This document shows positions 4,562 to 29,094 of a DNA stretch of 37,827 nucleotides, piece by piece (position 1 is the first letter of the stretch; each line of letters begins with the position of its first letter). A program made the translations under genes and the position numbers. The notes beneath the pieces were generated by a model. It saw nothing but the letters and a program-made list of their open reading frames with translations. It was not told where the DNA came from and ran no database searches. Origin of the DNA: Candidatus Jordarchaeia archaeon (GTDB lineage Archaea; Asgardarchaeota; Jordiarchaeia; Jordiarchaeales; Jordiarchaeaceae); assembly GCA_029856435.1 (NCBI GenBank), contig JAHQXB010000043.1, forward strand, positions 1 to 37,827, given 5' to 3'.

Positions 4562-6055
4562 TTATTTTTTTAATTCTTTTATTACCTTTTCCGCGGCCCA
4601 GCGGCCGGATGTTATGCAGGGCTCGTATCCACCTCCTGGCTGAGTCCAAGCCCCAGCAAAGTAGAGGCCCTTAAGGGGTCCCTCATTAGACAAGCGTGAG
4701 AGCGGCCCATCTTTCACAGAGTAGGTGAATCCCAGATAGGTTCCCCCGGGGTTGCCAGAATACCTCATGAGGGTTATTGGGGTGGCGACCTCAATGACCT
4801 CTATGTGTTCCCTTAAGCCCGGAAAATGTTTTTCCGCCTTTTTTATCAGCATTTCTGCATATTTGTTTTTAGTTTCTACATATTTTGAGGATGGGGTGCT
4901 GTACCATGGTTCCGGGTCGCTGAGGGCGGAGAGCACAATTACAGATGTTCCTGGGGGGGAAAAGTTGGGGTCGCCCTTATTGTAGGCTGTTAATAGTAGT
5001 AAGTCGGTGTCGTTTAGTTTTTTCCTTGATTCGTAGACTCGGTCATGGTCGTATGTGTCATAGTACCATATTTCAAAATCGTCTATACCAAGTTCCTTGC
5101 ATGAGGCGTCCATTCCCATATAGGCGGTTACTAATGATGTGCTGATTTCACTGGTTCTTATTCTTTCCAGAAAGGATTGGGGTACCTTGTCTTTTCCAAT
5201 TAGGTTGACTGCTGTGGAGATGGGATTGACGTTTGAAATAATGTGGTCGCTGTGTATTTTTTCACCCTTTTCGGTGATTACGCCCTTTACTTTGCCTCCC
5301 TCTGTGAGGATTTGTTTGACTCCGCAGCCCAGCCTTACCTCTCCACCGTTTTTCTCTATGACATCTATAAATGCGCCGGATAACATGGCGGATTTTCCAA
5401 AGATTTGTTTGGGGCCATTCCCTATGTATGAGGAAAGAGCGATGGCGAATAGAACATAGGATATTTTTGAGGGCGGCAAACCGAAGTAGGGCCAGTACAC
5501 GCTGAGCACCGCCCTGAGCTTCTCATCCTTAACGTAGGAGTTTACCACTTCGCCCCAAGTCTTATCCATCTTTGTGAGCAGGTATTCTTGAAGTTGCTCC
5601 TGAGTCATCTTAGGCTTTCCTGTTTGCAGATAATCAATAGCGTAGCCCGTGTTAAAAGACAACTCAAAAATTTTCTTGATTCCCTCCGCCTCTCTGGGAA
5701 AATGGTCTATGAGAATGCCTTCCGCAGCCTCCCGGTTAGCTGGAATTGTTATGTCAATGTCTGGAAACACCGCCCGATAACAGTCCTCCAGACTCACAAA
5801 TTTAGCCCTGTCCATTATGCCCAGTTCTTCAAGAAAGAGGCATAGCCCACTTTTCTCCTTCAAATTTAGTCCAGACATCTGGTGAAGAGAAATTTCAAAC
5901 TCGAAACGGCCCCTAACAAAGGTTGAGGCGTAACCCCCGGGCTGATGGTGCCGCTCCAAAAGCAATACACTCAACCCATTTTTGGCAAGAGTCGCCGCCG
6001 AAGCAAGGCCGCCCAAACCTGCACCAATAACTATAGCATCGTATCGGTCAGCCAT
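4562..6055 (-). CDS. FAD-dependent phytoene-desaturase-like oxidoreductase (copy 2)
   Basis: This 497-residue member of the CrtI/COG1233 family (amine-oxidase-like fold) opens with the dinucleotide-binding motif GAGLGGLASAATLAKNG and E35 for the FAD ribose. GGYASTF follows. The C-terminal flavin signature is 'GLYFAGAWTQPGGGYEPCITSGR'-like, ending GRWAAEKVIKEL. Family members desaturate, saturate or isomerise polyprenoid chains, using FAD. Archaeal relatives also act on isoprenoid or quinone side chains, so the substrate is open. It lies 105 bp after its paralogue and 22 bp before the reductase. No carotenoid synthase or cyclase is adjacent, which argues against a plain carotenoid cluster. Confidence 0.85.
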   Translation of the reverse strand: MADRYDAIVIGAGLGGLASAATLAKNGLSVLLLERHHQPGGYASTFVRGRFEFEISLHQMSGLNLKEKSGLCLFLEELGIMDRAKFVSLEDCYRAVFPDIDITIPANREAAEGILIDHFPREAEGIKKIFELSFNTGYAIDYLQTGKPKMTQEQLQEYLLTKMDKTWGEVVNSYVKDEKLRAVLSVYWPYFGLPPSKISYVLFAIALSSYIGNGPKQIFGKSAMLSGAFIDVIEKNGGEVRLGCGVKQILTEGGKVKGVITEKGEKIHSDHIISNVNPISTAVNLIGKDKVPQSFLERIRTSEISTSLVTAYMGMDASCKELGIDDFEIWYYDTYDHDRVYESRKKLNDTDLLLLTAYNKGDPNFSPPGTSVIVLSALSDPEPWYSTPSSKYVETKNKYAEMLIKKAEKHFPGLREHIEVIEVATPITLMRYSGNPGGTYLGFTYSVKDGPLSRLSNEGPLKGLYFAGAWTQPGGGYEPCITSGRWAAEKVIKELKK

Positions 6056-6160
6056 AATTTTCCCTCTAATTAATCTCTTAATACACCTCCCAAATCCAAA
6101 TTTTCACTTTGGACTTAATAATCTTTGATACCATCCATATTTTTTATTTTTACTTTTAAA

Positions 6161-7663
6161 TCAGCGTTCTTCATCCTTTTTCCTAATTATCGCCTCAGCC
6201 GCAGCCTTACCAGAAAGTATGCAGTTTTCGTAGGCTCCTCCAGGCTGACTCCAAGCATTTGCCAAGTAAAGTCCTTTAAGGGGACCTTCCTGTGGAAGCC
6301 TTAAGGGTGGAGTTCCAGCAGTGGAGAAACTGAATCCCAGATAGGTTCCTCCATGGTTCCGAGTATATCTCATTATGGTTAGAGGTGTGAACACTTCTAC
6401 CACTTCTATGTGTTCCCGGAGTTCCGGAGCCACCTTTTCTGCTTTTGTGATCAGCCTGTCTGCAAGTCTATTTTTTGTTTCCACGTACTTGTGAGGGGGC
6501 AAATCGTACCAGGGGTCAGCATAACTGGGAGCGGTAAGGGTAATAACTGATGTGCCGGGTGGTGAGAAGTCGGGGTAGGCTAGGTTGTATGTGGTGATTA
6601 GTTGGTGTTCTGGTTCCTCCAAGGTGAAAGCCTTTTGGTAAGCTTTGTCAAAGTCTGGGTGGTCGTTCAGACCTATTTCAAATTCTTTTATTCCAAGCTT
6701 ATGGTGTGGGGTGTCGAGTCCCATGTAAACTCCAATGAGGGAAATTCCCACCTCGTTTGACCTGAGTTTGTCGAAGTATGTGCCTGGTATTTTGTCCGCT
6801 CCTATGAGGTCTAGGGCCATGGTTAGAGGGTTAGCATTTGAAACAATGAAATCCGATTTTATCTGTTCACCGTCATCTGTTAGAACTCCGGTTACTCTGT
6901 CTCCCTCCGTGAGTATCTTCCTTGCACCGCAGCCGAGGCGAACTTCACCACCATACTCTGTGATAAGTTCTACAAAGGCCGCAGCAAGGCCGTGAGATTT
7001 TTCCCTGGGTTGTGCCCCTCCATAGTGGAATAGGTGGGACATGGCGACCGCAAAAATAATGTAGTCAACTTTTTTGGGTGGTAGGCCCAGAAACATCCAT
7101 AGTTGAGAGATTATGGCTCTCACCATGGGATTCTTAACTTCAGGATACATTATGTCAGCACAAGTTTTTCCCAAGTAGCCGAGCAGGTTTTTTGAGAGTT
7201 CCTCCTGAGTTAGACTGGGGTCTCCTCTGCGGAATTTGTTTATGGTTTCAAAGGTTGCAAACATCCGGTTTAGAAATTTGGTTATGTCTTCGCCGTCCTT
7301 GGGAAAATTTTCCTTCAACAAGTTTTCAATATTTTCCTTACCGGTGGGTAGGGTGATTTCAAAGTCTGGAAACACACATTGGTAAACGTTCTTCAGTTTT
7401 GTGAATTCCACCTTCCTGGTAATGCCCAGTTCCTCAAGGTAAGGGATAAGATTTCCAGTTTTCCTCTCCAGATCCGTGCCAGAAAGCATATGGAGTGAAG
7501 AGTCAAATTCGAAGCGGCCCCTAATAAAACCAGTAGCGCAGCCTCCGGGCAGTTCCCTCTTTTCAAGTAGAAGAACACTCAGCCCATTCTTAGCCAACAG
7601 GGCGGCGGAGGAAAGACCACCAAGACCACCGCCAATGACTATCACATCATACTTATCAGGCAT
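6161..7663 (-). CDS. FAD-dependent phytoene-desaturase-like oxidoreductase (copy 1)
   Basis: This is a close paralogue of the next gene in the operon, aligning from the N-terminal GGGLGGLSSAALLAKNG to the C-terminal LYLANAWSQPGGAYENCIL. The start chosen is the ATG at 7661-7663 (MPDKYDVIVIG): GGAGAGAGG sits immediately upstream, and the FAD motif then begins at the usual distance, giving 500 residues. The frame stays open to 7726, but the extra residues are unlike the family. Conserved blocks include LPGGCATGFIRGRFEFDSSLHMLSG (38-62 region) and 'YTRNHGGTYLGFSFS'. It is probably the first gene of the operon. The two copies may form a heterodimer or act on successive substrates; that is inference. 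Confidence 0.85.
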   Translation of the reverse strand: MPDKYDVIVIGGGLGGLSSAALLAKNGLSVLLLEKRELPGGCATGFIRGRFEFDSSLHMLSGTDLERKTGNLIPYLEELGITRKVEFTKLKNVYQCVFPDFEITLPTGKENIENLLKENFPKDGEDITKFLNRMFATFETINKFRRGDPSLTQEELSKNLLGYLGKTCADIMYPEVKNPMVRAIISQLWMFLGLPPKKVDYIIFAVAMSHLFHYGGAQPREKSHGLAAAFVELITEYGGEVRLGCGARKILTEGDRVTGVLTDDGEQIKSDFIVSNANPLTMALDLIGADKIPGTYFDKLRSNEVGISLIGVYMGLDTPHHKLGIKEFEIGLNDHPDFDKAYQKAFTLEEPEHQLITTYNLAYPDFSPPGTSVITLTAPSYADPWYDLPPHKYVETKNRLADRLITKAEKVAPELREHIEVVEVFTPLTIMRYTRNHGGTYLGFSFSTAGTPPLRLPQEGPLKGLYLANAWSQPGGAYENCILSGKAAAEAIIRKKDEER

Positions 7664-8068
7664 TCCTCTCTCTCCATTCATTTCAACGCCAGTACAACAA
7701 ATTTTTTGAGAAAAGCCTTTTTCCAAATTCTTGATTTTAGTCTTTTAGGTGGAAAAATTATTTATGCATATTCTAAGCGCAATCCTAAAATTTTAACATC
7801 GATTCGTAGTAACTAACACTCCTAAAAGCTTCATAAAAGAGCATCGGAATGAAACAATCCAGCCTGATTCGCCGCCTTAGGGACTCAAAATCACAAAAGC
7901 CACAAAATTGCTCCTTTTTAGAAAATCAAAAGCCTACATTCAATTACAAGAATTGTGGCAAGAAAGGCCTCCACCTCAAGAGTCTAGGATAATGTCAATG
8001 GCTCAGAAAGACATTTAACTACACTCTAATATTAATTCTATAATTATTAAAGGTGGAGGAGTGCCCTT
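7664..8068. other. Divergent intergenic region between FAD operon and flavodoxin
   Basis: The region holds both promoters. An AT-rich ATGCATAAATAATTTTT stretch (minus strand, about 7750-7770) suits the FAD operon, and TCTAATATTAATTCTATAATTATTA (about 8026-8050) suits flavodoxin. A 47-codon plus-strand ORF (7849-7992) exists but has no ribosome-binding site and is not called. Confidence 0.4.
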
Positions 8069-9967: not shown

Positions 9968-12900
9968 TTATATTTTTTTGGCTCTCGCCGACACATCTTG
10001 AAGTATCAGGTTTAACAGTTTTATTAGTTCCATATTTGTGGTGTATATTCCCAGAGGCTCTGGTGCTGCGACTGCTAGGATCATTTCTTCGCTGTCCCTG
10101 TTGAAGGCGTACACATTTCCGGAGTAATGTTTGATTTGTATGTTTGGCGTGGATATTGGGGGAGCCTTCCCCTCAACGTCTGAGACCAACATGACTCTCT
10201 GTCTGGGCATCTGTGAGAGCTCACTTAAGGGTACGTCCTCAAGAGTGGGTGTTAGGATTGTTATGGTGCTCTTTGTGTTTCTTATGAAGGTTTTGAGCAG
10301 GTTGAGTATTTGCTCTCTTCCCACCACCCTCTCAGTGTCTTCGAATGGTTTGGGCTCAATTTCCTCGGCTAGTTTCATTATTTTGGTAATTAATTTCAGG
10401 GTATCCTGGGTGTTGGTTATGGCTTCATCTATTTTTTCTGGAATTTCTTCTGCGAAGCTATTTAGGGCTAGAGTTGAGTCTCTCTCGTTTTCTTCGATGT
10501 TTATCTTGGTTAGGGTTATGGTTTTGCTTATTTCTTTTAGGTAGTTTGAGGTTGCTTCTTGAAGCTGTTGTTTCAGGGACTGTTCCATGGTTGAGTAACC
10601 TGAGTTTAGGGCCTCTCCAAGTGAGGTGTAACTATCCTTTATGCTTTCAATGGTTTCATAGGTTTTGGATTTGAGGTCAGAGTGTCTTTTTTCAAATAAG
10701 AGACCCAGTTCTCTTTCAAAATCCAAGAGTTTTGTTTGAAGGCTTGCGAAAGGCTTATCAGTTATTCCAGCAACGCTCTTCAGTTCGGTTTCTGTGGCGT
10801 CTCTACTCTCCCTACTATGTTTGTCCAGTGTAGATAACAAATCGTATTTCATTTTTTCCAAGTAGCCTGGCAATTCTTGTCCAATAGCGGATATTACCTC
10901 TTTGGCTCCTTTTAGCACATTGTCCTGTTTCTCCCTAATCTCGTCTCTGGTCTTGGCCAGGTTTTCTTCCAGTTTTTCCTTATGGTCAGTGAGTTGTTTT
11001 CTGAGCACTTGGAATTCTTGTTCTATTCTAGAGGATACCTCCTTCTCCTTTAGGCTCAACAGTTTTACTGCCTTCTCAACGTAGCCATTTAGAGCCTCCT
11101 TTAAATTGGAGTGGAATTCTCCCAGTCTTTGCTCAGTTGTACCAATGAACTCCTTTATCTGGGTTTCCAAGTTTCTTTCAAGCGCCAGCCTCTCATCAGA
11201 TATCTCCTGAATGATCTGGCTTCCAAGGACGGGGACCTCGCTGGCAATTTTATCCGCGAATGTTTCCAAATCCGCTATGGACTCTGAGGAAACTTTTTGT
11301 ATTTCTTCTTTTGAAGCTAGAAGGCCACTAACAGTTTGCCTGGTTCGTGTGAAAATTTTTTGGGCCTCTATATTTGCGTTTTCCAAAGTTTTCTGGAGGC
11401 TTTCAGTGGTTTCCTCAAGTGAACTCTTTAAAGTCTCAGAAAGGCTCTCCACTGTGCCTTTAAACTGGCCCACAGTGTTTTCTATCAGTGCAGTGGACTG
11501 GGCTCTTACTGATGTCAACACCTCGCTGAGGGTCTGCGATACTTGACTTAGCTGCTGTGTGGCCTCACTAAGCATCTCCTCTCCCTGCTGACTCACTCTC
11601 TGGGACATGTTGGAGCATTGTTTCAGAATGTTTTCCCTCCCCTTTTTCATTGCATCTCCAATGCTTCGCTCCAGCTGGTTCTGAAGAGATAAAACGTTTT
11701 TGCCCTGTTCACTTAAGTTATTGATTGTTTCCTCTAAAAACTTGTTCAGAGCCATTCCAGTTTGTTCCTTGAAGCTGTTCTGCTCTTCCAATATTTTGTT
11801 AATTTCATTCTTCACAGATTCGTGTAGTGCCTGATAGGTTTCAACGATTTTTCCAATCTTTGATTCGAAGGCGCCCAGTAGGGTTTTTATTTGCTCAGCT
11901 TTGCCCGACACCTCTTCATCAGCGTATTTTTCTGTGCGTTTAACCATTTCACTGCTTTCTGTAAACATGGATGCTGCGAGTTCTTCCAATTGCTTGGAGA
12001 AGGAATCTGTAGCCTCGGTTAACTTTGAGTGATGATTAGAATTCAGAGTGTTCAGTTTTCCCCGCATCTCCTCCAAGTTTGTGGCTTGGGTCAAAATGGA
12101 GCTAAGTTCTTGGAGAGAGTTTAGATTTGTTTCGGTGACAGCACTGGCGCTGTCTGAGACCAACTTGTAACTGGTTTCTAGCACGTCCTGGACTTGGCCA
12201 AAAAGGTTGCCCAATTGCTCCTGAACATCCGAAGAAAGGGCAGTGGTGGTTTCATAATTTTCAATTATTGCTTTCTGTAAAACTTCAGAGGTTTCCTCCA
12301 ACTGTTTACTGATTCTAGTTTTAGCTGATTCAAACGCTGTTAAGCAGCTGTCTTCATGGCTTCTCATCTGGCTTGAGGCGTCTTTTATAATCTCCATTAT
12401 TTCTTGAAGATAGCTGTCTAATTGCTTGTCAACCTCCAGGAATGATTCGCTCAAACTGCTCTCGTTTATGTTCTTGAGGTTAATTATTTCGGAGTTCACA
12501 ACATCTTCGTAGGTTACCTTCACCGCTTGGTCAATTTCCCCTTTAGTTTTGGCGTCCTGGTCAACGAATAGGCGAATTGTTTTTTCAGTGCTCTTTCCGA
12601 GCGACTCTCTAATGTATGTCAAACTCCTGTCAAGCTCATCGAGGATGTTTGTGGAAACCATATTAATATTCTGGTTAACATCATTAACGGAGCTGCGTAG
12701 TTCACCTTTTAGAACCATAATTTCCTTTTTACTTGCAGCGATTCTATTCATAAGCTCCTCTGTTTCTTCCTTTCCCAGTGAGAACTTTTTCTTATCGCCC
12801 GACTTGTCCTCAATGTACTGGAGGATGTCAACCATTTTGTTAATCGCGGTGGTGAAGGTTTCTTCAAAACTGGTCATTTTACTCTTTTGAACCGCAACAC

Positions 12901-15406
12901 TATCTGTAAAGTTAACTGAAAGATTTTTTCTAAGAGACTCTGACTCGGAAGCGAAGTTGGACATAAAGTCTTCTAGGTGTTTCTTGGTTAACTGTGTCCT
13001 ATTCTCCAAGTACTCACCAATTTTTCCCACCAGACTCTTGTCCGCTTCACTTATCCTTTTTAGAATATTTTCTACAACTGTTCTTAAGTCTTTAGAGGCG
13101 CTGTCTTTTCTTTCTTTTAAGTTTTGCTTTAGGGATTTGGTTCTCCCGTCTATTTCTGCGCCTTTTGTTTCCAGCTCGACCTCCACTTTTTGGAGCCCTT
13201 CGCTTAGGGACGATTTTAACAGTTTTTCCTGCTCCCCCAAAATTTCCCAGATTTTTTCCAATCCCTTTTTTACTTTGTCCGAGTCAATGGTCTTTTTTGT
13301 GAATAGAGTCTCTTCCCACTCCTTAGTCTTTTTCTCCAATTTCTCCTTCAACTGTTCAAGATTTTTCATCAGCTCTTCTTGATTGGTTCTAAGGGTTGAT
13401 GCAACCTGCTGGCTCTGCGCATTTATTTTTTCTTCCACAATTGTACGGGTTTTGTTAAAGGACCCCATTATGTAGTTAACCTTGTTCTCCAATCCCTCAA
13501 TTGTCTGTTTTAGGGCTTCATCGATTTCCACCAAGTAACTGTCCCTAAGGACCGTTATTCTGTCACCAACGCTTTTTGCCAGCCCAACAAATCTCTGTAA
13601 CACCTGGTCACTGTGTTTACGAAATTCTTGAACCAAGTTTTCCCGCAGTTCATTTAGGGTGTTGTGGAATTCTTGTATTGCATCTTTGACCAAGTTTTTC
13701 ACAGAGTCATTAGTCTGGCTAGTTACAGAGTCAAAAGCCTGTTTTGACCAGTTATCGAAGCCAATCAAACTGTTTTCCCGAGCATCTAAAACCTCGTGGA
13801 AATTGTCCAGAGAGATTTGCACTGCTTCCTTAAATTTGTCCTGAAGTTTGTTTAGAACCGCAGCCTGTTCTTTTATGCAGCTCTCCACTTCACTCATAAC
13901 CATTGCGGAGTAGCCCTCAAAGAGATGTGTGGTGGACTTCTCAATTATTGTTCCCTGTTCTTCCACAGCCCTCATCAGAGACTCTTTTAAGTTTCGGGAA
14001 GCTTCTCCGATCATATTTATTTGTGTTTGGATTTTCTCTCCCAGAGTGAGTAAGCTGCCACCCAAAGAGTCAGCCATTTGCTCCCACTGTTTCGAAATCT
14101 GGAATACTGTTCGCTCAAAGAGGACTCCCTGTCCACCCTCATATTTTTTTAGTGTAGTTGTGATATCTTGCATCCTTTGTCCTAGTGCCTCAAATGATCT
14201 ATCTAGTGTGCTTAGGGGTTCTGTGGTTTCATCCTTATATTTCTCCATTATGCGTGATGCTTCCGTTTGGAAATTGTTTATGAATTCTTTAATCTTGGAG
14301 TTTACTCTCTTTGATTCTTCAAGTATTAGACCTCTAAGCTTTGCGGTTTGAACCTTAACCTTTTCCTCAGCTTCTCCTAGGAAGCCGACTAATTTTTTCT
14401 GGTTCAGATCGAGGTTTTTTCCGATATCCCCTAAAAGTGCCGAGTTAACGTCCCTCACTCTTGATAATTGTGTTTCAGTTAGGGGCTTCAATTCCTCCAC
14501 AAATTCCGAAACTCCAGACATCACGGTCTTAGCAATTTTTAGGGTGTTTTCATTTATAGTGTTTAGTGATTGGAGTTTGATGTCTCTAACACCTTTTAGA
14601 GATTGGTCTAAGGTATAATCTATGTCTGAGAATAGGGTTATGAGTTCAGAGTTTGTTCTTGCGGATACATCGCTTGTTCTTGTTTCTATGGCTTTTAAAG
14701 TATCGTTTACAGCGGTTTCCAGCTTTTCTTGAAACTCATTTATGGAGTTTCTTGTATGTTCTATGAAGTCCTTCAAAACTTTCTCGGAAGTTTCCTTTAC
14801 CCTTTCTATGTCGCTTCGAAAGGTGTCCACTGCTTCTTTGGCTCTGCCGACGAGGGTTTTTATTATTTCGCGGGAATCCTTCTCGTGGTGTTCAAGCATC
14901 TGTGTTAGGAGCTCTCCAACGCTTTGTGATTGTTGATTTGCTTCGGTTTGAAAATTGTCCAAGGATTCTTTAGTTGAAGCCAGAAGCTGGCCTAGCAGTT
15001 GAGAACTACTGTCTTTAACTTCCTTCAAATAAGTGGCTAAGCGCTCATCCAGACGAGTTTTGAGAGAAAGCACGCTCCTACTAAGTTGTTCAATGGCGCT
15101 TTTGGCACGTTCCACCATGTTTTTCTTCAAGTTTTCCAGCTTTGACTGAAGTGTTTCGGCAACCATACCAGTAAGGGCTAGGCGGGGGGTTAAAGCAATG
15201 TAGAAGTCAATTTTTCCCGGAATTTTTTTAATAACTCCCATAGACTCCAGTTTTTCCAGCTCCCGTGTAACTTCCGGAATGGTTAGATTCGTGTAGACTG
15301 CTAATTCTGAGGCTGTTTTTGCGCCAAGTCCCACACATGTTGCGTAAACTTTTGCCTGTACGCCGGTTATTCCAATATCCTTCAGAGTGTCTTCCCAAAC
15401 GGACAT
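9968..15406 (-). CDS. Giant TrmB-like HTH - coiled coil - PLD-like protein (1812 aa)
   Basis: Residues 1-75 form a winged helix of the TrmB type, including ITGVQAKVYATCVGLGAKTA and a recognition-helix region TIPEVTRELEKLESMGVIKK. Residues about 80-1670 are almost unbroken helix rich in S, T, E, K, Q and L. I count only about half a dozen prolines and three cysteines there, with loose 7- and 11-residue periodicity. Residues about 1690-1812 (VVGREQILNLLKTFIRNTKS, then TITILTPTLEDVP, to the end) match the C-terminal PLD-like domain seen in TrmB-family regulators. TrmB regulators are usually 250-350 residues, so here the short linker coil has become roughly 1600 residues, over 200 nm if a straight helix. 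It is the third gene of the operon, one base after the previous stop. A DNA-tethered filament or spacer is the inference; no function is known to me. No transmembrane segment is visible. Confidence 0.85.
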   Translation of the reverse strand: MSVWEDTLKDIGITGVQAKVYATCVGLGAKTASELAVYTNLTIPEVTRELEKLESMGVIKKIPGKIDFYIALTPRLALTGMVAETLQSKLENLKKNMVERAKSAIEQLSRSVLSLKTRLDERLATYLKEVKDSSSQLLGQLLASTKESLDNFQTEANQQSQSVGELLTQMLEHHEKDSREIIKTLVGRAKEAVDTFRSDIERVKETSEKVLKDFIEHTRNSINEFQEKLETAVNDTLKAIETRTSDVSARTNSELITLFSDIDYTLDQSLKGVRDIKLQSLNTINENTLKIAKTVMSGVSEFVEELKPLTETQLSRVRDVNSALLGDIGKNLDLNQKKLVGFLGEAEEKVKVQTAKLRGLILEESKRVNSKIKEFINNFQTEASRIMEKYKDETTEPLSTLDRSFEALGQRMQDITTTLKKYEGGQGVLFERTVFQISKQWEQMADSLGGSLLTLGEKIQTQINMIGEASRNLKESLMRAVEEQGTIIEKSTTHLFEGYSAMVMSEVESCIKEQAAVLNKLQDKFKEAVQISLDNFHEVLDARENSLIGFDNWSKQAFDSVTSQTNDSVKNLVKDAIQEFHNTLNELRENLVQEFRKHSDQVLQRFVGLAKSVGDRITVLRDSYLVEIDEALKQTIEGLENKVNYIMGSFNKTRTIVEEKINAQSQQVASTLRTNQEELMKNLEQLKEKLEKKTKEWEETLFTKKTIDSDKVKKGLEKIWEILGEQEKLLKSSLSEGLQKVEVELETKGAEIDGRTKSLKQNLKERKDSASKDLRTVVENILKRISEADKSLVGKIGEYLENRTQLTKKHLEDFMSNFASESESLRKNLSVNFTDSVAVQKSKMTSFEETFTTAINKMVDILQYIEDKSGDKKKFSLGKEETEELMNRIAASKKEIMVLKGELRSSVNDVNQNINMVSTNILDELDRSLTYIRESLGKSTEKTIRLFVDQDAKTKGEIDQAVKVTYEDVVNSEIINLKNINESSLSESFLEVDKQLDSYLQEIMEIIKDASSQMRSHEDSCLTAFESAKTRISKQLEETSEVLQKAIIENYETTTALSSDVQEQLGNLFGQVQDVLETSYKLVSDSASAVTETNLNSLQELSSILTQATNLEEMRGKLNTLNSNHHSKLTEATDSFSKQLEELAASMFTESSEMVKRTEKYADEEVSGKAEQIKTLLGAFESKIGKIVETYQALHESVKNEINKILEEQNSFKEQTGMALNKFLEETINNLSEQGKNVLSLQNQLERSIGDAMKKGRENILKQCSNMSQRVSQQGEEMLSEATQQLSQVSQTLSEVLTSVRAQSTALIENTVGQFKGTVESLSETLKSSLEETTESLQKTLENANIEAQKIFTRTRQTVSGLLASKEEIQKVSSESIADLETFADKIASEVPVLGSQIIQEISDERLALERNLETQIKEFIGTTEQRLGEFHSNLKEALNGYVEKAVKLLSLKEKEVSSRIEQEFQVLRKQLTDHKEKLEENLAKTRDEIREKQDNVLKGAKEVISAIGQELPGYLEKMKYDLLSTLDKHSRESRDATETELKSVAGITDKPFASLQTKLLDFERELGLLFEKRHSDLKSKTYETIESIKDSYTSLGEALNSGYSTMEQSLKQQLQEATSNYLKEISKTITLTKINIEENERDSTLALNSFAEEIPEKIDEAITNTQDTLKLITKIMKLAEEIEPKPFEDTERVVGREQILNLLKTFIRNTKSTITILTPTLEDVPLSELSQMPRQRVMLVSDVEGKAPPISTPNIQIKHYSGNVYAFNRDSEEMILAVAAPEPLGIYTTNMELIKLLNLILQDVSARAKKI

Positions 15407-15407
15407 T

Positions 15408-17720
15408 TTAGGCTTCCCCTACTTTTGAGATTTCTTTTTCAACGGCCTCTAATTGTTTTTGAGCTTCGCTCACAGACTTCAAAAAGTTTGCGAGTCCCTT
15501 TGATATGCTTCCTCCACTCTTTTTCACTTCACCCTCAACAGAGGAGAGGCTGGTAATAAGCGTTTTAATGTTCTCCTGTATATTGCTCATCTCTTCCTTC
15601 AATTCTTTGAGCAGCTGGTTTCCCTGTTCTGATAATTCACTGCTTGTTTTTTTGCCTTGCTCCGACAGTTTTTTAGAAATACTTGCGTAGGAACCTTCAA
15701 GGTTTTCCTTCACCTTTACTTTAACGGAAGTCAAGCTGGGTTCAGCGTCCTCAGCCACACTTTTTATATATTCGCTTAGGGAGTATTTTTCCGCATCTGC
15801 GGTTTCCAAAATGCTCGATTTGCTCTCCTCCAACTCCTTCTTGAGACTACTTATACTATTTGTGACGATGTTCTTTAGGGTGGACTCCAATCTCTCAACA
15901 GACTCCATAGTTGCTGAAGAACTCTCATTTATTCCTTCACCCATTTTTTGCTGGAACTCATTTACCAGATTTTCAATACTTTTTCCCAAATTCTGGTCCA
16001 GCTCCCGCAATTTCTTGATGAAGGCTTCCTGCACTTCTATCGTTTTCGTTTTGGTTCCTTCAAGAATTTGACTAAAATTCCCTTTTGATTCTCCAACGTC
16101 TCTAATCACTCTTTCTAGGGATTGCTCTATTTCTGTGGTCATGCTTGTTGATGCACTTTCTCCAATTTCACCCATCAATTCACTGGTGCTTTTAATAAGT
16201 CCTGAGGTCTTACTCCTGAAATCAGCATTCTGAGATAGGATTAAGGCTTGGTTGGCGTCGAGGACGCTCCTAACATTCCTTGTGACACTATCTTTAATGG
16301 ACTTGTTCTTTTCAACATATCCCTCCAAAGATTCAGACAGTTTTTCTAGGAATTTTTTTAGAGCCCCATCAAAATCCTGCTTTGTTTCTGCCAGTCCAGA
16401 GTCGAAATTGGACTTTATTAGTGAGGCGTTATCATAGAAGGATTTAACGGACACAGTTGCCATTTGTGTGAATTGCTCCTCATAGCTTTGAAGAACGGAT
16501 TGAATCTCCTTCAGTTGCGAAACAAACATTTCATTAATATTAGTATTTATTGAGTCTACCAATTTGGATATCTGCTCCAAAGCACTCGAGAGATCCTCTC
16601 TTATCTGTTCCTGTAAAGATAGCACACTTCCCTCCAGTCGTTCCAGCTGACTCACAAGTTGGGAAGAGAAGCTGGAAATCAGGTTTCCCACACTCTTGGA
16701 GAACTCTTCCTCCTTTGAACTGACTACTTCCGAAAGTTTATCCTTGGCTCTGCTGCTAATCTCTTCAATTTCCTTGATTTTAGCTTCCGCAATGCCTTTT
16801 AGTTCTGTTTTAAACTCTTCTTTCACCTTCTCCAGAAGGGATGTAGCCTCCTCAAATTTTTCGTCCGCATCACCCTTAAGCCTTTCGTGAGACTCAGCCA
16901 CCTTACCCTTATACTCGTCACAAATCTTGTCCAGAGAGCTTATGGTTTCTGTATCCAGCGTTTCCAGCCTATTTTTCATCTGGAGAACCATGGATTCAGC
17001 TTTCCTTTTGGCGTCCGCAAATATGGATAAGAGATTATCTTGATGCTTATCTAAAATTTCAGATGCCTGTGTTCCAAAATCCCCAATTTGAGTCGTAAAG
17101 CGTGCATAGTTTCCTTTTATTTCGCTGCCTTCCTCCTCTTCGAATTTTTGTATGCTTGAAAGGAGTTGACTGCTTAACTCTTCAGAGACTTTTGATAATA
17201 GTTCCTCCTGTTTCTTTCGGTTTTCCTGAGTTTTGGAGCGAAACTCCGCCGCTAGTTCACCAATCTGTGAAATCATTGATTCTACTTGGGTGTCCAGGTT
17301 TGATTGTGTGCTTGTGATACTTTGGCTGAAACTGCCCTTTGAAGCCTCAATTTTTTCCGTGATTCTACTATCTACTTGTTTCAGGTTTGCAAGTAGCCCC
17401 TCAGTTATGCGGTCAATTCCCTGGCTGAGAGCATCAACCTGAGTGTTAATTTCTTCCCTCAGGCTTGCCTCCATCTCTTGCATCCATTTAATGACATTGC
17501 TTTCAGCATCCTTAAGTGAGGCCAAAAACTTCTTCCTTAACGCATCCTCATTCGACTGCAGCTGTTTTGAAGCAGTTTTCAATTTTTCAGATGAGGAACC
17601 AATTTGCTCAGTTAAGCTGGAAAACGTCTGGTCTAACCTCGTTTCCAATTCCTTGACACTATTTTTTGTTTCTTCCAATGATTCCCTTTTGGCTGCAACC
17701 TTCTGCTGAATTTTTTCCAT
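15408..17720 (-). CDS. Large proline-free coiled-coil protein (about 770 aa)
   Basis: The protein is helical coiled coil throughout, with a single proline (in EDAEPSLTSV, near 690) and one cysteine (KICDEY). Composition matches the middle of the following giant protein (S/E/K/L/Q-rich; phrases such as 'LxxxLESLxxxVExxx'), but it has no HTH and no C-terminal domain. The start chosen is ATG at 17720 (MEKIQQK): AAGGAGGA lies about ten bases upstream, whereas ATG at 17729, which makes a four-base overlap with the ATPase stop, directly abuts that site. It ends one base before the giant gene begins. The two probably co-assemble through their coils. No family beyond generic coiled-coil or apolipoprotein-like repeats is recognised. 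Confidence 0.8.
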   Translation of the reverse strand: MEKIQQKVAAKRESLEETKNSVKELETRLDQTFSSLTEQIGSSSEKLKTASKQLQSNEDALRKKFLASLKDAESNVIKWMQEMEASLREEINTQVDALSQGIDRITEGLLANLKQVDSRITEKIEASKGSFSQSITSTQSNLDTQVESMISQIGELAAEFRSKTQENRKKQEELLSKVSEELSSQLLSSIQKFEEEEGSEIKGNYARFTTQIGDFGTQASEILDKHQDNLLSIFADAKRKAESMVLQMKNRLETLDTETISSLDKICDEYKGKVAESHERLKGDADEKFEEATSLLEKVKEEFKTELKGIAEAKIKEIEEISSRAKDKLSEVVSSKEEEFSKSVGNLISSFSSQLVSQLERLEGSVLSLQEQIREDLSSALEQISKLVDSINTNINEMFVSQLKEIQSVLQSYEEQFTQMATVSVKSFYDNASLIKSNFDSGLAETKQDFDGALKKFLEKLSESLEGYVEKNKSIKDSVTRNVRSVLDANQALILSQNADFRSKTSGLIKSTSELMGEIGESASTSMTTEIEQSLERVIRDVGESKGNFSQILEGTKTKTIEVQEAFIKKLRELDQNLGKSIENLVNEFQQKMGEGINESSSATMESVERLESTLKNIVTNSISSLKKELEESKSSILETADAEKYSLSEYIKSVAEDAEPSLTSVKVKVKENLEGSYASISKKLSEQGKKTSSELSEQGNQLLKELKEEMSNIQENIKTLITSLSSVEGEVKKSGGSISKGLANFLKSVSEAQKQLEAVEKEISKVGEA

Positions 17721-17725
17721 AAAGT

Positions 17726-19447
17726 TCATTCCTCCTTAATTGTAACTTTTTTGTTTAAAGCCTCAAACTCCTTTAGAAAAATCGGCTGATTAGTAAAGGC
17801 GTTTGTAGCCTTTTCATATAACCTCTTTATTCTATCTTTGTCACCCGCCCGCATGTAATGTTCAAAGGCTTTGTGATAAAAAACTCGAGCCATCATTTTG
17901 AAGCCCATACCATCATATTCGTCTCCAATTTCCTCGTAAATTAAAGCAGCACTCCTAGCTACGGAGCGGGCCTTCCACTCCACACCCAATGCGGCAAAGA
18001 GTTCCGAAGCGTGGGAAAGAAGGAATCGTGAATAGAAGCGTTTACCCTTACCCTCAAAAAGTTCAGCGGCCTTCTCCAGAATCATTCCCGCCCGCTCCCT
18101 ATCCCCCAACCTTTCATAAATACTTACAGTTATCCGGAAAAGCTGAAAAGATTCACTATAAAGCTTCTTCTCCATAGCAGAGTATGCATAAACCTCGGCG
18201 TTTGCAGCAATCTCTAAGGCAAGGGCCGGTTTATCCTGAGAAATCAACATGTTCGCTGAATCCCTCAACCATTCAAAATAAATACGATCCAACCTCTCCC
18301 TAGTCTCTATCATCCTTCCAATAACCTTCAACAACGTTCTTGCTCGGCCATAAATCTGATCCACGTTTACAAGAAGCCTCAACATTTCATAGATGGCTTC
18401 AGACTTGAGCCACACCGTGGACTCATCAACCTCCACTATGCCCTCTCCAACCAAGAGGTTTAGAACCTCCCGACTGGTTTTCTTATCACCCTCCTGACTT
18501 ATCTCCTCTATGGGAACCATGTTAAATTTTTGCGAAACAATCCTCTCTATTACCGTCTCCTTTTCCACAGTGAGATCAGTTATAGCATTGAGAGCATTAT
18601 CTTGGATCTTTCCATTTACCATTCGAAAAAGTTCTACGCTTGGCTGAGAACCACTCTTAACGGTTTCCCGCAGCAAGCCACACATAAACAAGGCTAGTTT
18701 GAAAGGAATACCCCCCGAAGCTTTGGTTAATTCCTCCTTAAGAGCATCATCAATTTTGATTCCAGTTAAAGCCTGATATTTCTGTATTAACAGTCGAATA
18801 TCTTGGGTGGAGAAAACATCCAACTCCACAACATAAAAGAGTTCAGGCCTATCACCTATCAAAGCCTCAAGAAACCTTCTGTCCACGCAGAGCACAAAAA
18901 ACAAGTTAAATTTCATTTCGCCCAGTTTAGCTGCCACCTCTCTCAATAGAAGATAAGCGGTCTCGTAACCCAACCAGGCGAAACGCTCAAAATCGTCGCA
19001 GAAAAACATCAAAGTCCTGCGAAGCTTTTCCTGAACCTTATCCATATCCTCAAAAAACTGCTTCAAAAAGTATTCCAGCTCACCTTCCCCAAGCTCCTTG
19101 GACACGGGGGGAGCCGCAACATATTTTTTTTCTCCCATAAACTTTTTCCTAGCCTCAGGAGCATAACCATCAACAGTCTTCTTAACATCATCAAAAAACA
19201 CTCTCACATTGGACGCAGAAACCCTTCTAACCACCACTTCGATGCCTTCCTTTTCCGCTATCTGCGTAAACCTTTTTAGCAGGGAAGACTTTCCAATACC
19301 GGGAATCCCAGTTATAACGAAAATCCTCCTATCCTCAGAACCAGTCTTCGCCCGAGAAATAAAGTCCTGAAACAAGCTAACCTCTCTGGTTCTACCCGTA
19401 AAAAGCTCCCTATCAACAGGCTCAACACAACTAATTTTCTTCTCCAA
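17726..19447 (-). CDS. STAND/AAA-type ATPase with winged-helix and TPR-like tail
   Basis: The start chosen is the TTG at 19445-19447 (M-EKKISCVEPVDRELFTGR), five bases after GGTGG; the frame is open to an ATG at 19510, but that stretch has no ribosome-binding site and looks like AT-rich promoter. From this start, 'FTGRTREVSLF' precedes Walker A GIPGIGKSS (47-55). Walker B is LMFFCDD (about 146-152), and 'NLFFVLCVDRRFLEAL' is the sensor strand. 'ASGGIPFKLALFMCGLL' is typical of AAA_16/STAND ATPases of the archaeal DUF-ATPase group. Then follow a winged-helix region (about 305-360) and helical TPR-like repeats (about 400-570). STAND ATPases act as nucleotide-controlled switches. As first gene of the coiled-coil operon, it is the likely motor or switch for the two coiled-coil proteins. 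Confidence 0.85.
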   Translation of the reverse strand: MEKKISCVEPVDRELFTGRTREVSLFQDFISRAKTGSEDRRIFVITGIPGIGKSSLLKRFTQIAEKEGIEVVVRRVSASNVRVFFDDVKKTVDGYAPEARKKFMGEKKYVAAPPVSKELGEGELEYFLKQFFEDMDKVQEKLRRTLMFFCDDFERFAWLGYETAYLLLREVAAKLGEMKFNLFFVLCVDRRFLEALIGDRPELFYVVELDVFSTQDIRLLIQKYQALTGIKIDDALKEELTKASGGIPFKLALFMCGLLRETVKSGSQPSVELFRMVNGKIQDNALNAITDLTVEKETVIERIVSQKFNMVPIEEISQEGDKKTSREVLNLLVGEGIVEVDESTVWLKSEAIYEMLRLLVNVDQIYGRARTLLKVIGRMIETRERLDRIYFEWLRDSANMLISQDKPALALEIAANAEVYAYSAMEKKLYSESFQLFRITVSIYERLGDRERAGMILEKAAELFEGKGKRFYSRFLLSHASELFAALGVEWKARSVARSAALIYEEIGDEYDGMGFKMMARVFYHKAFEHYMRAGDKDRIKRLYEKATNAFTNQPIFLKEFEALNKKVTIKEE

Positions 19448-19616
19448 AATAACCACCAACCAAAAATGAACACTAAACAAAAATAATAGAGAAAAACGAT
19501 AAATAAACATTTTTTAACTAAACCAGAAAAGGGGAAAAGTTTAGAATAGAATTTCACAAAAACAAAATTATACATCCTCAGCACAAAATCCCAAGCTTAG
19601 AGAGGAGGAAATAGTT

Positions 19617-20645: not shown

Positions 20646-21098
20646 TTATTTGGAGGATTTGCCTAGTTCTCTGATTCTGGACTGTATGAACTCCAAAACT
20701 TTCTCTTCACCGTATTTTCTCTCTTCTTGTTGTTTTTTCAAAAGTTCTCTAACTGCTTTTAGGAGTTCTTCCATGTTTAGGGGTTTAAGTAGGTATCTAT
20801 CGGCGTTCCTATTTACGGCTTCTATGGCATTCTGCATAGTGGGGTAGCCGGTAATTATTATTTTAGCCATTTTTGGAACTGTTTCTTTCATCATGCTTAG
20901 CAATTTTGTTCCCTCTATGTCTGGAAGGCGAATGTCTACCAGTGCCAAGTTGTAGAAATTGTTTTCCGTTTTTTCTATCGCCTCCTTACCATTTCTAGCA
21001 GTATCAACGGTGTAGCCTTCCTCTTGAAGTATAGCAGTTAAAACTTTTCTTATGCTTTCATCATCGTCCACAATAAGAATCCTAGCGGGTTCACTCAT
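20646..21098 (-). CDS. Response-regulator receiver protein (single domain)
   Basis: A CheY-like receiver of 150 residues is seen. The acidic triad is DDD (11-13), phospho-acceptor D55 (LALVDIRLPD), T83 (IIITGYPT) and K105 (YLLKPLN), so all key residues are present. The tail (about 120-150) is a charged helix with no DNA-binding domain, so output is by protein contact. The start is ATG at 21098, preceded by GGTGA and overlapping the kinase stop by eight bases; the open frame could begin at GTG 21107. The overlap implies translational coupling to the kinase, its evident phosphodonor. Confidence 0.93.
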   Translation of the reverse strand: MSEPARILIVDDDESIRKVLTAILQEEGYTVDTARNGKEAIEKTENNFYNLALVDIRLPDIEGTKLLSMMKETVPKMAKIIITGYPTMQNAIEAVNRNADRYLLKPLNMEELLKAVRELLKKQQEERKYGEEKVLEFIQSRIRELGKSSK

Positions 21099-23811
21099 AA
21101 TTTTCACCGTCCTTAATTTTTCGTTTAATCGGAAGCGTTATCGTAATAGTGGTGCCCTTCCCAAGCAAACTTTCTAAAAGAATGGAGCCCCCGTGAGCCT
21201 CCACCAGTCGTTTACAGATTGGTAAGCCCATTCCAAGCCCCCTCGCCTTTGTAGTGAAGAGCGGGGCCCAAATTTTATCCAAAAGCTCAGGGGGCACTCC
21301 TCTTCCGGTGTCCGCAAAAATTATTTTTAAGTTACCGCCAGCCAATCTAGTTTCTATTGTGAGCTCGCCACCCTCCGGCATAGCATCAACACTGTTTTTA
21401 ACAATGTTCACAAACACTCTCTTCAGTTTCTCCACATCAACCATAACTACTGGATCATCAATAACCACTTTTGACACTCGAATATTGTCTGGCACATCCA
21501 CCAAACTTAAAGCCACATCCACAACGCTTTTAACACTGGCCTCAGCTAGTTCCAGTTGAACCTCTCCTGAATACTCCAGAAGATCCTCGACTATTTTATT
21601 AGAATACTGTACGTTTTTCTCGATTAGTTCAAACATTTCAGCTGTTTTCTCATCCATGCTTGAAGCCAGCTTCTTTTTCAAGTAATAAACAGCGCCAGCA
21701 ATGCCGGTCAAAGGGTTGCGGAGATCGTGGCCCACCATCATCGCCACCTCACCTATGGTGGCCAGTCTCTCCGACTTGAGAAGGGCTTCCTCCATCATTT
21801 TGCGTTCAGTTATATCTTTCGTTATCGCCACAAAACCTATGGGTTTGCCTGAAGCATCCCGCAAAACACTCGCAGACAACTCAGCCGGAAATTCTCGTCC
21901 ATCTCTAGTCAAAAGAGTATACTCAACATTACTCACAGAACCTAGCATCAAAGTTTTCATCAGATTACGATTGGCTTTTTCCCTATCTTTTTCAGCAATA
22001 TACTTGAAAGCACTTTGACCAATCACTTCCTCCCTAGATGAGAAACCGTGAACGTCCAAGGTTGCTTGGTTGCATTCAATCACATTTCCATTAAGGTCAG
22101 TGACGGTGATTGCATCTGGGGAGGAAGATAGAATGGTTCTAAGCTTCTCCTCGCTCTCCTTCAACTCCTTAGTCCTTTCTTCCACCATTGCCTCAAGACG
22201 CTCCGCATATTCCTTCAACTTCTTCTCCAACCTTTTACGCTCGGTTATGTCTCTTAAAAAGACCAAATCTGCGGTTTTCCCCTGAAAATTGATGCGCGCC
22301 GCGTTTATTTCTACGGGTAAGGGTGCGCCGTCTTTTTTTATGATTTCAATCTCATATATTGGTGGTACTTTTTTGCCCTCCAGTCGGTCATTGTATCTTT
22401 CAAGAACAAGTTCCCGGTAATCGGGAGCGACGAAATTCAAGAAATTAGCGCCTTTGAGTTCTTCAGGCGTGTATCCCGCAAGCTCTACTGAAGCAGTGTT
22501 AACAAATTTAAGTTTGCCGTCTTGGATTATTATGATACCATCCTTTGAGTTCTCAACCACAGCAGAATATTTAGCCTCTGATTCCCGCAACGCTTCCTCC
22601 GCAAGTTTACGCTCAGTAATATCCCTTGACACTGCAAGTATAGCTTTAGGCTTCCCATACGCATCCGCTATTACCGACATATTGGTCTCAATTGAAACGA
22701 CTGTGCCATCCATCTTAACTATTTTGTATTCAACGTTGCGTGCGCTACCTGTTTCAAGAAGACATCGCATAATCTCCAGTGCGTGTTGACGGTATTCAGG
22801 CGCTATAAATTCAAAACCATTTTTCCCAATCAACTCCTCTTCCTTTTCGCACCCTAATACCTTTAAGCCCTCCCTGTTAACCATAAGTATTTTGCCATCT
22901 AGGTCAGTGAGTGTGATTGGGTCGGGTGAAGTGTCAACCAGGCTACGATATTTTTCTTCGCTCTCCCGCAAAGCCTCCTCTGCACGCTTGCGTTTAGTGA
23001 CTTCTAAGGTGACCTCAACAACACCTATAATGTTTCCTTTTTCGTCTCTAACAGGATAACCGCGAATAAGCCAAATTCGCCCATCCGGGGCAACCATCTC
23101 TCCTTCCTGCGGTTGACCAGTTTCTAAAGATTTTGTCACTGGGCAGCCTACACAGGGTTTGCTGCGCTTCTGCCAAACTTCATAACAATAGCGTCCCACT
23201 AGTTGTTCTGCTGTTAAAGAAGCGGATGTGCCAGCAGTCCTATTTGTCCATACAATCCTATGATCCTTATCTTGATAAATAACATCCTCAGCTATACTAT
23301 CTAAGATTAGTGCTTTTTCCCGCTCAGCCTTTTTTAAAGCCTCCTCCATACGTTTACGCTCAGTTATGTCTATAACTACTCCTATTAAACCCACACACTT
23401 ATTTTCCCTAGTAAGGCGATTCGCAAGTATGGCGACTGGGAATGTGCTGCCATCCTTTCTACGAGCCGTGTACTCGATACTTCCCAGTTTCTCTCCCACA
23501 AGTACTCTTTGGAAATTTTTTACGGCTCTATCCAAATCTTCGGGAATTAACATTTGAAAGACATTTAAACCTTTATCATAGTCTTCCTGCGTGTAGCCAA
23601 ATGCTTTAAATGCGTAGCGGTTAGCAAAGGTAATATTGCCCTTGTCATCCGTTTCCCAAACAATTTGAGGTAAGGAATCAACCAATTCACGGAATCTATC
23701 TTCGTTCCGCCGAAGAAAATTCTCCATCCCCCCAACCTCACTGATTCCAAGCTGAAGTTGCCCATTAGCCTCCGATAATTTGGCGGTTTCCTTCAACACT
23801 ACTTCCTCCAA
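21091..23811 (-). CDS. Soluble multi-PAS sensor histidine kinase
   Basis: The sequence, counted from the TTG at 23811, holds five PAS/PAC units at about 37-152, 163-275, 285-400, 412-525 and 553-672, most ending in D-I-T-E-R-K. The second carries a C220-x2-C223 pair (KPCVGCP), so it could bind a metal or sense redox. HisKA has the phospho-acceptor H695 (MMVGHDLRNPL). HATPase_c has N806 (NIVKNSVDA), DTGRG (834-838) and GLGMGLP (858-864). No transmembrane helix is present, so it senses a cytoplasmic cue. The first residues (ETAKLSEANGQLQLGISEV) match the linker that normally precedes PAS in such kinases, so the true protein probably begins further upstream, in the frame at 23765-23968. ATG at 23727 is a possible internal start. 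The receiver gene follows with overlap. Confidence 0.9.
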   Translation of the reverse strand: MEEVVLKETAKLSEANGQLQLGISEVGGMENFLRRNEDRFRELVDSLPQIVWETDDKGNITFANRYAFKAFGYTQEDYDKGLNVFQMLIPEDLDRAVKNFQRVLVGEKLGSIEYTARRKDGSTFPVAILANRLTRENKCVGLIGVVIDITERKRMEEALKKAEREKALILDSIAEDVIYQDKDHRIVWTNRTAGTSASLTAEQLVGRYCYEVWQKRSKPCVGCPVTKSLETGQPQEGEMVAPDGRIWLIRGYPVRDEKGNIIGVVEVTLEVTKRKRAEEALRESEEKYRSLVDTSPDPITLTDLDGKILMVNREGLKVLGCEKEEELIGKNGFEFIAPEYRQHALEIMRCLLETGSARNVEYKIVKMDGTVVSIETNMSVIADAYGKPKAILAVSRDITERKLAEEALRESEAKYSAVVENSKDGIIIIQDGKLKFVNTASVELAGYTPEELKGANFLNFVAPDYRELVLERYNDRLEGKKVPPIYEIEIIKKDGAPLPVEINAARINFQGKTADLVFLRDITERKRLEKKLKEYAERLEAMVEERTKELKESEEKLRTILSSSPDAITVTDLNGNVIECNQATLDVHGFSSREEVIGQSAFKYIAEKDREKANRNLMKTLMLGSVSNVEYTLLTRDGREFPAELSASVLRDASGKPIGFVAITKDITERKMMEEALLKSERLATIGEVAMMVGHDLRNPLTGIAGAVYYLKKKLASSMDEKTAEMFELIEKNVQYSNKIVEDLLEYSGEVQLELAEASVKSVVDVALSLVDVPDNIRVSKVVIDDPVVMVDVEKLKRVFVNIVKNSVDAMPEGGELTIETRLAGGNLKIIFADTGRGVPPELLDKIWAPLFTTKARGLGMGLPICKRLVEAHGGSILLESLLGKGTTITITLPIKRKIKDGENYE

Positions 23812-27886: not shown

Positions 27887-27967
27887 ATGAAGGATAATAC
27901 ATATCGGTTCGTGGCAAAAAAGGAAGTTTCTCCCAATGAAGAAGGATGCTACAGGTTGATGCAATAA
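27887..27967 (+). CDS. Possible leaderless 26-codon leader ORF of wtpA
   Basis: The ATG lies 26 bases after the start of the TATA box, the distance for a leaderless mRNA. The frame encodes MKDNTYRFVAKKEVSPNEEG plus CYRLMQ and stops two bases before the wtpA ATG at 27970. Such spacing would couple its translation to wtpA, which has only a weak ribosome-binding site of its own. No homologue is known to me, and the length is close to chance, so this is a candidate only. Confidence 0.35.
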   Translation: MKDNTYRFVAKKEVSPNEEGCYRLMQ

Positions 27968-27969
27968 AA

Positions 27970-29058: not shown

Positions 29059-29094
29059 ATAGGAGGATTCAAACAGTTAAAGCATAGGAAAAAT

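What the first reader, a model, noticed from the sequence alone, without database searches (positions are those of the whole stretch)
9968..19447. Three-gene operon: STAND-type ATPase plus two giant coiled-coil proteins
An ATPase with TPR-like tail, a coiled coil of about 770 residues and a 1812-residue HTH-coil-PLD protein lie almost end to end (gaps of 5 and 1 bases). Together they form an ATP-switch, a filament and a DNA-binding filament. I know no described system with this set. Possible roles (inference) are chromosome organisation, an SMC-like tether, a cell-scale ruler or a defence scaffold.
Basis: partly seen in the sequence, partly recalled or inferred. Interest (0 to 1): 0.85.

Follow-up and report, generated by a model that had tools for sequence, protein, structure and literature searches.

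The report
Asgard operon: ATPase plus giant rods
Asgard archaea, the closest known prokaryotic relatives of eukaryotes, carry a strictly conserved three-gene operon that couples a STAND-type nucleotide switch to two exceptionally long, straight coiled-coil rods (predicted at about 65-115 nm and 140-240 nm); no described system matches it, and it is most likely a cell-scale scaffold or tether of unknown target.

Summary
The window is a 37.8-kb contig of a Jordarchaeia (Asgard) genome. It holds a STAND-like ATPase (17726-19447), a 770-aa coil (15408-17720) and a 1812-aa TrmB-type HTH/coil/C-domain giant (9968-15406), nearly end to end. In Asgard genomes with enough contig the coil follows the ATPase in 43/43 cases and the giant follows next in 36/37; the 37th shows the giant's start at a contig end. 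About 55 of 228 Asgard genomes carry the ATPase, once each, inherited vertically. It is absent full-length from about 165 other archaea, plasmids and viral contigs. The coil is one uninterrupted hendecad (11/3) over ~730 residues; its length stays 767-773 aa at ~20% identity, while the giant varies from 1168 to 1812 aa. Operon giants have lost the recognition-helix basic residue of TrmB (1/34 versus 19/20 in ordinary TrmBs), so DNA binding is doubtful. ATPase catalytic residues erode in some families, so it is a switch rather than a motor. Best reading: a nucleotide-gated long-range scaffold or tether, target unknown. Defence, Zorya and SMC membership are not supported.

The parts
17726..19447 (-). 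STAND-like ATPase, 573 aa from TTG 19447 (ORF open to ATG 19510): Walker A GIPGIGKSS, Walker B FFCDDFERF, STAND GxP-type motif SGGIPFK, probable winged helix, C-terminal TPR/SNAP-like alpha-solenoid
   Evidence: Pfam AAA_16 1.9e-11, nSTAND1 6e-6, SNAP 5e-4; motifs across families; AF2 tail (A4 residues ~385-568) pLDDT 70-87, Foldseek best hit KLC1 TPR 3.8e-5
15408..17720 (-). Coil protein, 770 aa from ATG 17720 (773 aa from ATG 17729): one uninterrupted hendecad coiled coil, no globular domain found
   Evidence: Constant phase over ~730 residues; power 96.9 at 11/3 vs shuffle max 6.2; length 767-773 in f1, f2, f13 at ~20% identity
9968..15406 (-). Giant protein, 1812 aa: TrmB-type wHTH, ~1600-aa hendecad coil with phase breaks, TrmB-type C-domain
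   Evidence: Pfam TrmB 1.6e-8 over cut-off; PDB profile TrmB 3qph 1.4e-12, TrmBL2 3e-10 for the N-terminus
15183..15385 (-). wHTH (residues 8-74 of the giant) with degenerate recognition helix
   Evidence: Pfam PF01978; recognition-helix K/R in 1/34 operon giants vs 19/20 short TrmBs
9971..10339 (-). C-terminal PLD-like domain of the giant (about residues 1690-1812), conserved ...RDxEE...
   Evidence: Alignment A2; PDB profile top hits 2f5t/3qph TrmB E~0.25 and TrmBL2; 5/24 relatives hit PF11495 Regulator_TrmB, best 3.7e-6

Best explanation
A dedicated Asgard scaffold or tether machine. SHOWN: a conserved operon of a STAND-like ATPase with a TPR tail, a 430-770-aa continuous hendecad rod (about 64-114 nm if fully helical) and a 1168-1812-aa rod derived from a TrmB protein (about 140-240 nm of coil) with a globular cap at each end. 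INFERRED: the rods are coiled-coil oligomers. The giant's two caps (degenerate wHTH and PLD-like domain) are docking modules, one of them held by the ATPase's TPR tail or by the coil protein. Nucleotide binding, rather than sustained hydrolysis, gates assembly or release, as in other STAND proteins. The result is a nucleotide-gated rod that bridges or spaces two cell structures over 100-250 nm. The target (nucleoid, membrane or cytoskeleton) is unknown.
For: Gene order 43/43 and 36/37 with gaps mostly -8 to +34 nt, across nine GTDB families. In f22 (two genomes examined) the giant stays within ~8 kb even when split from the pair. One copy per genome and monophyly of every family in the ATPase tree. 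Coil length conserved per clade (767-773, 479-487, 427-437, 463-464) while sequence drifts to ~20% identity. Period 11/3 in all coils and giants, with a/e/h plus half of d hydrophobic, an arc of ~130 degrees nearly free of charge, and strongly acidic outside: a coiled-coil rather than a lipid-binding pattern. TPR tail modelled at pLDDT 70-87. Walker A Lys lost in f21 and f26 and Walker B second acid lost in f17, which argues for a switch rather than a motor.
Against: No interaction, oligomer state or location is shown. No confident model of the caps was obtained (AF2 with two sequences: pLDDT 36 for the C-domain). The giant's coil has phase breaks and variable length, so it need not be a rigid rod. 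A sensor/regulator function is not excluded.
Confidence: 0.42

Rival explanations
1. Chromosome-organising system: the giant binds DNA by its HTH, like the chromatin protein TrmBL2, and tethers or loops the chromosome under control of the ATPase.
For: The HTH and C-domain are nearest to TrmB and TrmBL2. TrmBL2 coats DNA as thick, stiff filaments (PMC4877046). The operon is near-universal in four Asgard families with no detectable canonical SMC.
Against: The operon giants' HTH lost the recognition-helix K/R (1/34 vs 19/20) and the invariant Tyr (0/34 vs 20/20), with net charge -1.3 vs +2.2 (p=3e-4), down to -8 in f13. Families f1, f2, f11, f13, f22, f23 and f25-27 have the operon together with SMC.
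Confidence: 0.22
2. Signal-transduction pair: a STAND sensor regulates a TrmB-family transcription factor, and the long coils are only spacers.
For: STAND proteins and TrmB proteins are both commonly regulators (family knowledge; TrmB in PMC4877046). Neighbouring window genes include a two-component pair.
Against: A regulator does not need a 1600-aa coil plus a second 770-aa coil of conserved length. The recognition helix has degenerated. Neighbouring genes differ between families, so no regulon is apparent locally.
Confidence: 0.13
3. Membrane-surface system: the 11/3 helices are amphipathic lipid-binding helices (apolipoprotein or perilipin type) that coat membranes.
For: Pfam Apolipoprotein hits above cut-off in coil and giant; exact 11/3 period.
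Against: Narrow hydrophobic arc (~130 degrees), hydrophobics focused at a/e/h, and net charge about -6 per 100 aa, unsuited to anionic membranes. 11/3 periodicity is equally that of hendecad coiled coils.
Confidence: 0.1
4. Anti-phage defence system (Zorya-like or Avs-like STAND).
For: PADLOC ZorA profiles match the coils at up to 2.8e-30; STAND ATPases occur in defence.
Against: The matches are confined to coil regions of ZorA with no MotA/TolQ membrane part. Single copy, monophyletic in every family, present in all f17 genomes found, no mobile or defence neighbours; absent from plasmids and viral contigs.
Confidence: 0.04

Closest known systems
TrmB / TrmBL2 family (archaeal regulators and chromatin protein)
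   Same: wHTH, coil and PLD-like C-domain order; N-terminal profile hits TrmB at 1.4e-12 and TrmBL2 at 3e-10; C-domain top PDB hits include TrmB and TrmBL2
   Different: Coil stretched to about 1000-1600 aa; recognition-helix basic residue and Tyr lost; encoded with an ATPase and a second rod
STAND NTPases (nSTAND1 / AAA_16 / archaeal ATPase_2)
   Same: P-loop, hhhhDD Walker B, GxP-type motif, TPR superstructure-forming tail
   Different: Catalytic residues erode in several families; fixed partners are coiled-coil rods, not an effector enzyme
SMC / condensin and archaeal coalescin
   Same: Long coil plus ATPase; possible structural role in the cell
   Different: No ABC head, no hinge; ATPase and coil are separate genes; operon giants' probable DNA-contact residue lost
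Long tethers of eukaryotes (golgins, EEA1) and lamins (from memory, analogy only)
   Same: Cell-scale coiled-coil rods with globular ends
   Different: No homology was tested or found; hendecad rather than heptad repeats

Membership tests
STAND NTPase | Walker A P-loop | tested here: met
   GIPGIGKSS in the window; K replaced by R in f21 and f26
STAND NTPase | hhhhDD Walker B and GxP motif | tested here: met
   FFCDDFERF and SGGIPFK in the window; second acid lost in f17, GxP eroded in f17
STAND NTPase | Superstructure-forming repeat tail | tested here: met
   AF2 tail pLDDT 70-87, Foldseek KLC TPR 3.8e-5; Pfam SNAP 5e-4
STAND NTPase | Nucleotide-gated oligomerisation | not testable with these tools
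   needs biochemistry
TrmB family | TrmB wHTH | tested here: met
   PF01978 34.7 bits vs cut-off 25.6; PDB 1.4e-12
TrmB family | PLD-like Regulator_TrmB C-domain | tested here: inconclusive
   5/24 relatives hit PF11495 (best 3.7e-6), the window protein itself does not; profile-to-PDB TrmB E 0.25
TrmB family | DNA-reading recognition helix (P..[RK].Y) | tested here: not met
   K/R 1/34 and Tyr 0/34 in operon giants vs 19/20 and 20/20 in short Asgard TrmBs; that the residue contacts DNA is inferred from conservation
SMC | ABC head and hinge | tested here: not met
   No SMC Pfam hit in any of the three proteins at E<=1
Zorya (ZorA) | MotA/TolQ membrane domain | tested here: not met
   Matches only to coil parts of the profiles; no membrane domain match
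Hendecad coiled coil | 11/3 period with a/d/e/h core | tested here: met
   period 3.66-3.68 in all rods; a, e, h 57-77% and d 38-49% large hydrophobic

The most novel reading that the evidence does not exclude
An Asgard-specific, nucleotide-gated nucleoskeleton-like or tethering machine built of fixed-length hendecad rods, which carries part of the job of SMC in the Asgard families (f15, f17, f20, f21) where no canonical SMC was detected: a third kind of long-coil ATPase organiser beside SMC and MukBEF.
Probability: 0.12. Interest if true: 0.95.

Novelty: categorically new. Interest (0 to 1): 0.74.

Why it matters
Asgard cell organisation is central to the origin of eukaryotes, and its structural proteins beyond actin, tubulin and ESCRT are little known. 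Here is a core, vertically inherited operon whose products would be among the longest rods in any prokaryote. It suggests how a transcription-factor family can be turned into a structural protein by stretching its coil. It gives testable length predictions (about 114 nm and up to about 240 nm). Its ubiquity in Asgard families without detectable SMC raises a concrete question about how those cells organise DNA.

Tried and rejected
Zorya/defence: profile hits are coil only. Apolipoprotein-type lipid binding: arc and charge disagree. Motor: catalytic residues erode. Flanking genes as part of the system: aldehyde oxidoreductase, V4R, M24 and other neighbours are not shared between families. Indels in the giant as exact multiples of 11: only 31 of 110 indels and 6 of 35 distinct lengths, and distinct lengths show no clear phase preference (mean cos 0.08), so the idea of strict unit-wise gain and loss was dropped. 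Literature searches for this set in the held open-access library found nothing; subscription papers and preprints are not covered.

Full report
OBSERVATION. The window is a complete 37,827-bp contig (G000:C83) of a 3.5-Mb genome. The same locus at 88-92% protein identity lies in JAHAWU010000038.1, 'Candidatus Jordarchaeia archaeon' (L026; L027), so the host is an Asgard archaeon. Three minus-strand ORFs occupy 9968-19510.

CONSERVATION. With the ATPase alignment (A1), strong matches occur in about 55 of 228 Asgard genomes, essentially one per genome. I fetched the surroundings of nearly all of them. Leaving aside families f22, f23, f25-27 and f18, the coil follows immediately in 43/43 cases with room downstream, and the giant follows it in 36/37. 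The 37th (G016) shows the giant's HTH at the contig end. Gaps are nearly all between -8 and +34 nt; two larger overlaps stem from one fragmentary and one alternative-start ORF. In f25-f27 a 1048-1123-aa giant follows the ATPase directly; in one f27 genome (G115) its frame is split. In f22 the ATPase-coil pair stands and a 1538-aa giant (seen whole in G099, cut by the contig end in G092) lies about 8 kb away on the other strand. Flanking genes differ between families, so the conserved unit is exactly these three genes. In the ATPase tree every GTDB family represented by more than one row is one clade; all f17 genomes found carry it. With A3, full-length matches outside the phylum were 0 in about 165 archaea (two partial matches at 1e-11). 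The C-domain profile matched 1 of 80 other archaea. Viral contigs and plasmids gave none. This is an Asgard core feature of certain lineages, inherited vertically.

THE ATPASE. Pfam gives AAA_16, nSTAND1 (just under cut-off), ATPase_2 and SNAP/TPR. Walker A, a DD Walker B and an SGGIP motif are present in the window. AlphaFold with two sequences is poor overall, but the tail (~385-568) reaches pLDDT 70-87 and Foldseek finds kinesin-light-chain TPRs. Across families the catalytic set erodes: K to R in Walker A (f21, f26), no second acid in Walker B (f17), no Walker B Asp in f26. The sequence supports a STAND-like switch, not an obligate motor.

THE COIL. All coil proteins peak at period 3.66-3.68, that is 11/3. 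In the window the phase is constant over about 730 residues. Power at 11/3 is 96.9 against a maximum of 6.2 in 1000 shuffles and 0.8 at the heptad period. Positions a, e, h and partly d are hydrophobic; the arc is about 130 degrees, essentially free of charge at its centre, with net charge near -6 per 100 aa. This is the pattern of a hendecad coiled coil; Apolipoprotein and ZorA database hits follow from the same periodicity. Length is fixed by clade: 767-773 (f1, f2, f13, at ~20% identity), 479-487 (f17), 463-464 (f21), 427-437 (f15), apart from one fragment. In f13 the phase is broken twice, so the uninterrupted state is not universal. At 0.1485 nm per residue (general knowledge) the 770-aa class would span about 114 nm.

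THE GIANT. The N-terminus is a TrmB wHTH (PDB TrmB 1.4e-12, TrmBL2 3e-10). The C-domain profile has TrmB and TrmBL2 at or near the top of its PDB list, though weakly (E 0.25-0.65), and 5/24 relatives hit Regulator_TrmB directly. Between them lie about 1600 residues of hendecad coil with several phase breaks. Length is not fixed: 1168, 1339, 1812 and 1812 within one genus. TrmBL2 is a chromatin protein that coats DNA as stiff filaments (PMC4877046), which invites a chromatin reading. I therefore tested the recognition helix against 20 ordinary short TrmBs from the same phylum. The conserved K/R is present in 19/20 short, 13/23 solo-giant and 1/34 operon-giant proteins; the following Tyr in 20/20 short and 0/34 operon proteins; mean HTH charge is +2.2, -0.6 and -1.3 (p = 3e-4 operon vs short). 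Related rows are not independent, and that this residue contacts DNA is inferred from its conservation, not shown. The operon HTH has probably become a docking domain.

SMC. Canonical SMC (PF02463 with ~1200-aa frames; PF06470 hinge) was not found in f15, f17, f20 or f21, except for fragments in two bins at 6-8% contamination; best hits there are Rad50-sized frames. These four families form one clade in the ATPase tree, and nearly all carry the operon. Other operon families have SMC. The raw association (Fisher 8e-9) uses hinge detection and ignores phylogeny; it is in effect one event, and the hinge is also missed in f22, which does have SMC heads. It is a lead, not evidence of replacement.

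MECHANISM. Shown: three linked products, a switch-like ATPase with a TPR tail, one rod of conserved length, one longer rod with two caps. Inferred: coiled-coil oligomers, TPR docking to a cap or rod end, nucleotide-gated assembly, a scaffold or tether role over 100-250 nm. I give this 0.42, a DNA-binding chromosome organiser 0.22, a regulator 0.13, a membrane coat 0.10 and defence 0.04.

NOVELTY. The parts belong to known superfamilies; the set, the hendecad rods of clade-fixed length and the structural re-use of TrmB match no system I could find (open-access library only). I rate the system categorically new, with an unproven mechanism.

Noticed in passing
L090:9717-10571, L091:7029-7913, L094:6948-7748, L096:10335-11168, L097:8760-9587, L098:7349-8299, L099:7953-8816, L103:1681-2625, L105:7287-8114, L110:622-1497, L046:4414-5322: Giant TrmB-coil proteins without the ATPase (753-2084 aa) occur in most Asgards; many sit directly downstream of a mutually homologous ~260-316-aa protein without Pfam hit, with a Cys-rich motif (C..C...R..C..RP.C..R) like a zinc site. 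A second, apparently undescribed two-gene system.
   Followed up: partly
Asgard families f15, f17, f20, f21 (e.g. G051 single contig, G040, G059, G079): No canonical SMC detected by head or hinge profiles, apart from fragments in two contaminated bins.
   Followed up: partly
L111:5023-6408 (small single-contig Asgard genome G010): A 461-aa protein with a ~130-aa N-terminal domain without Pfam hit in front of a TrmB HTH; the start resembles a longin/roadblock domain by eye only.
   Followed up: no
G000:C123 (L103:1-1597) and G000:C74 (L104:1-1824): The window's own genome also has a solo-type giant, apparently split over two contig ends (N-terminal 532 aa and C-terminal 607 aa).
   Followed up: no
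window 20646-23811: PAS-rich histidine kinase (906 aa) with an overlapping single-domain response regulator next to the operon.
   Followed up: no
window 1057-2898 and 27946-31136: Aldehyde ferredoxin oxidoreductase, and an ABC transporter (SBP_bac_11 binding protein, TOBE-domain ATPase) that may import molybdate or tungstate; AOR homologues also sit beside the operon in L029, L030 and L035.
   Followed up: no
window 4562-7726: Two tandem CrtI/CrtD-like FAD desaturase-family genes next to a ferredoxin-type oxidoreductase.
   Followed up: no
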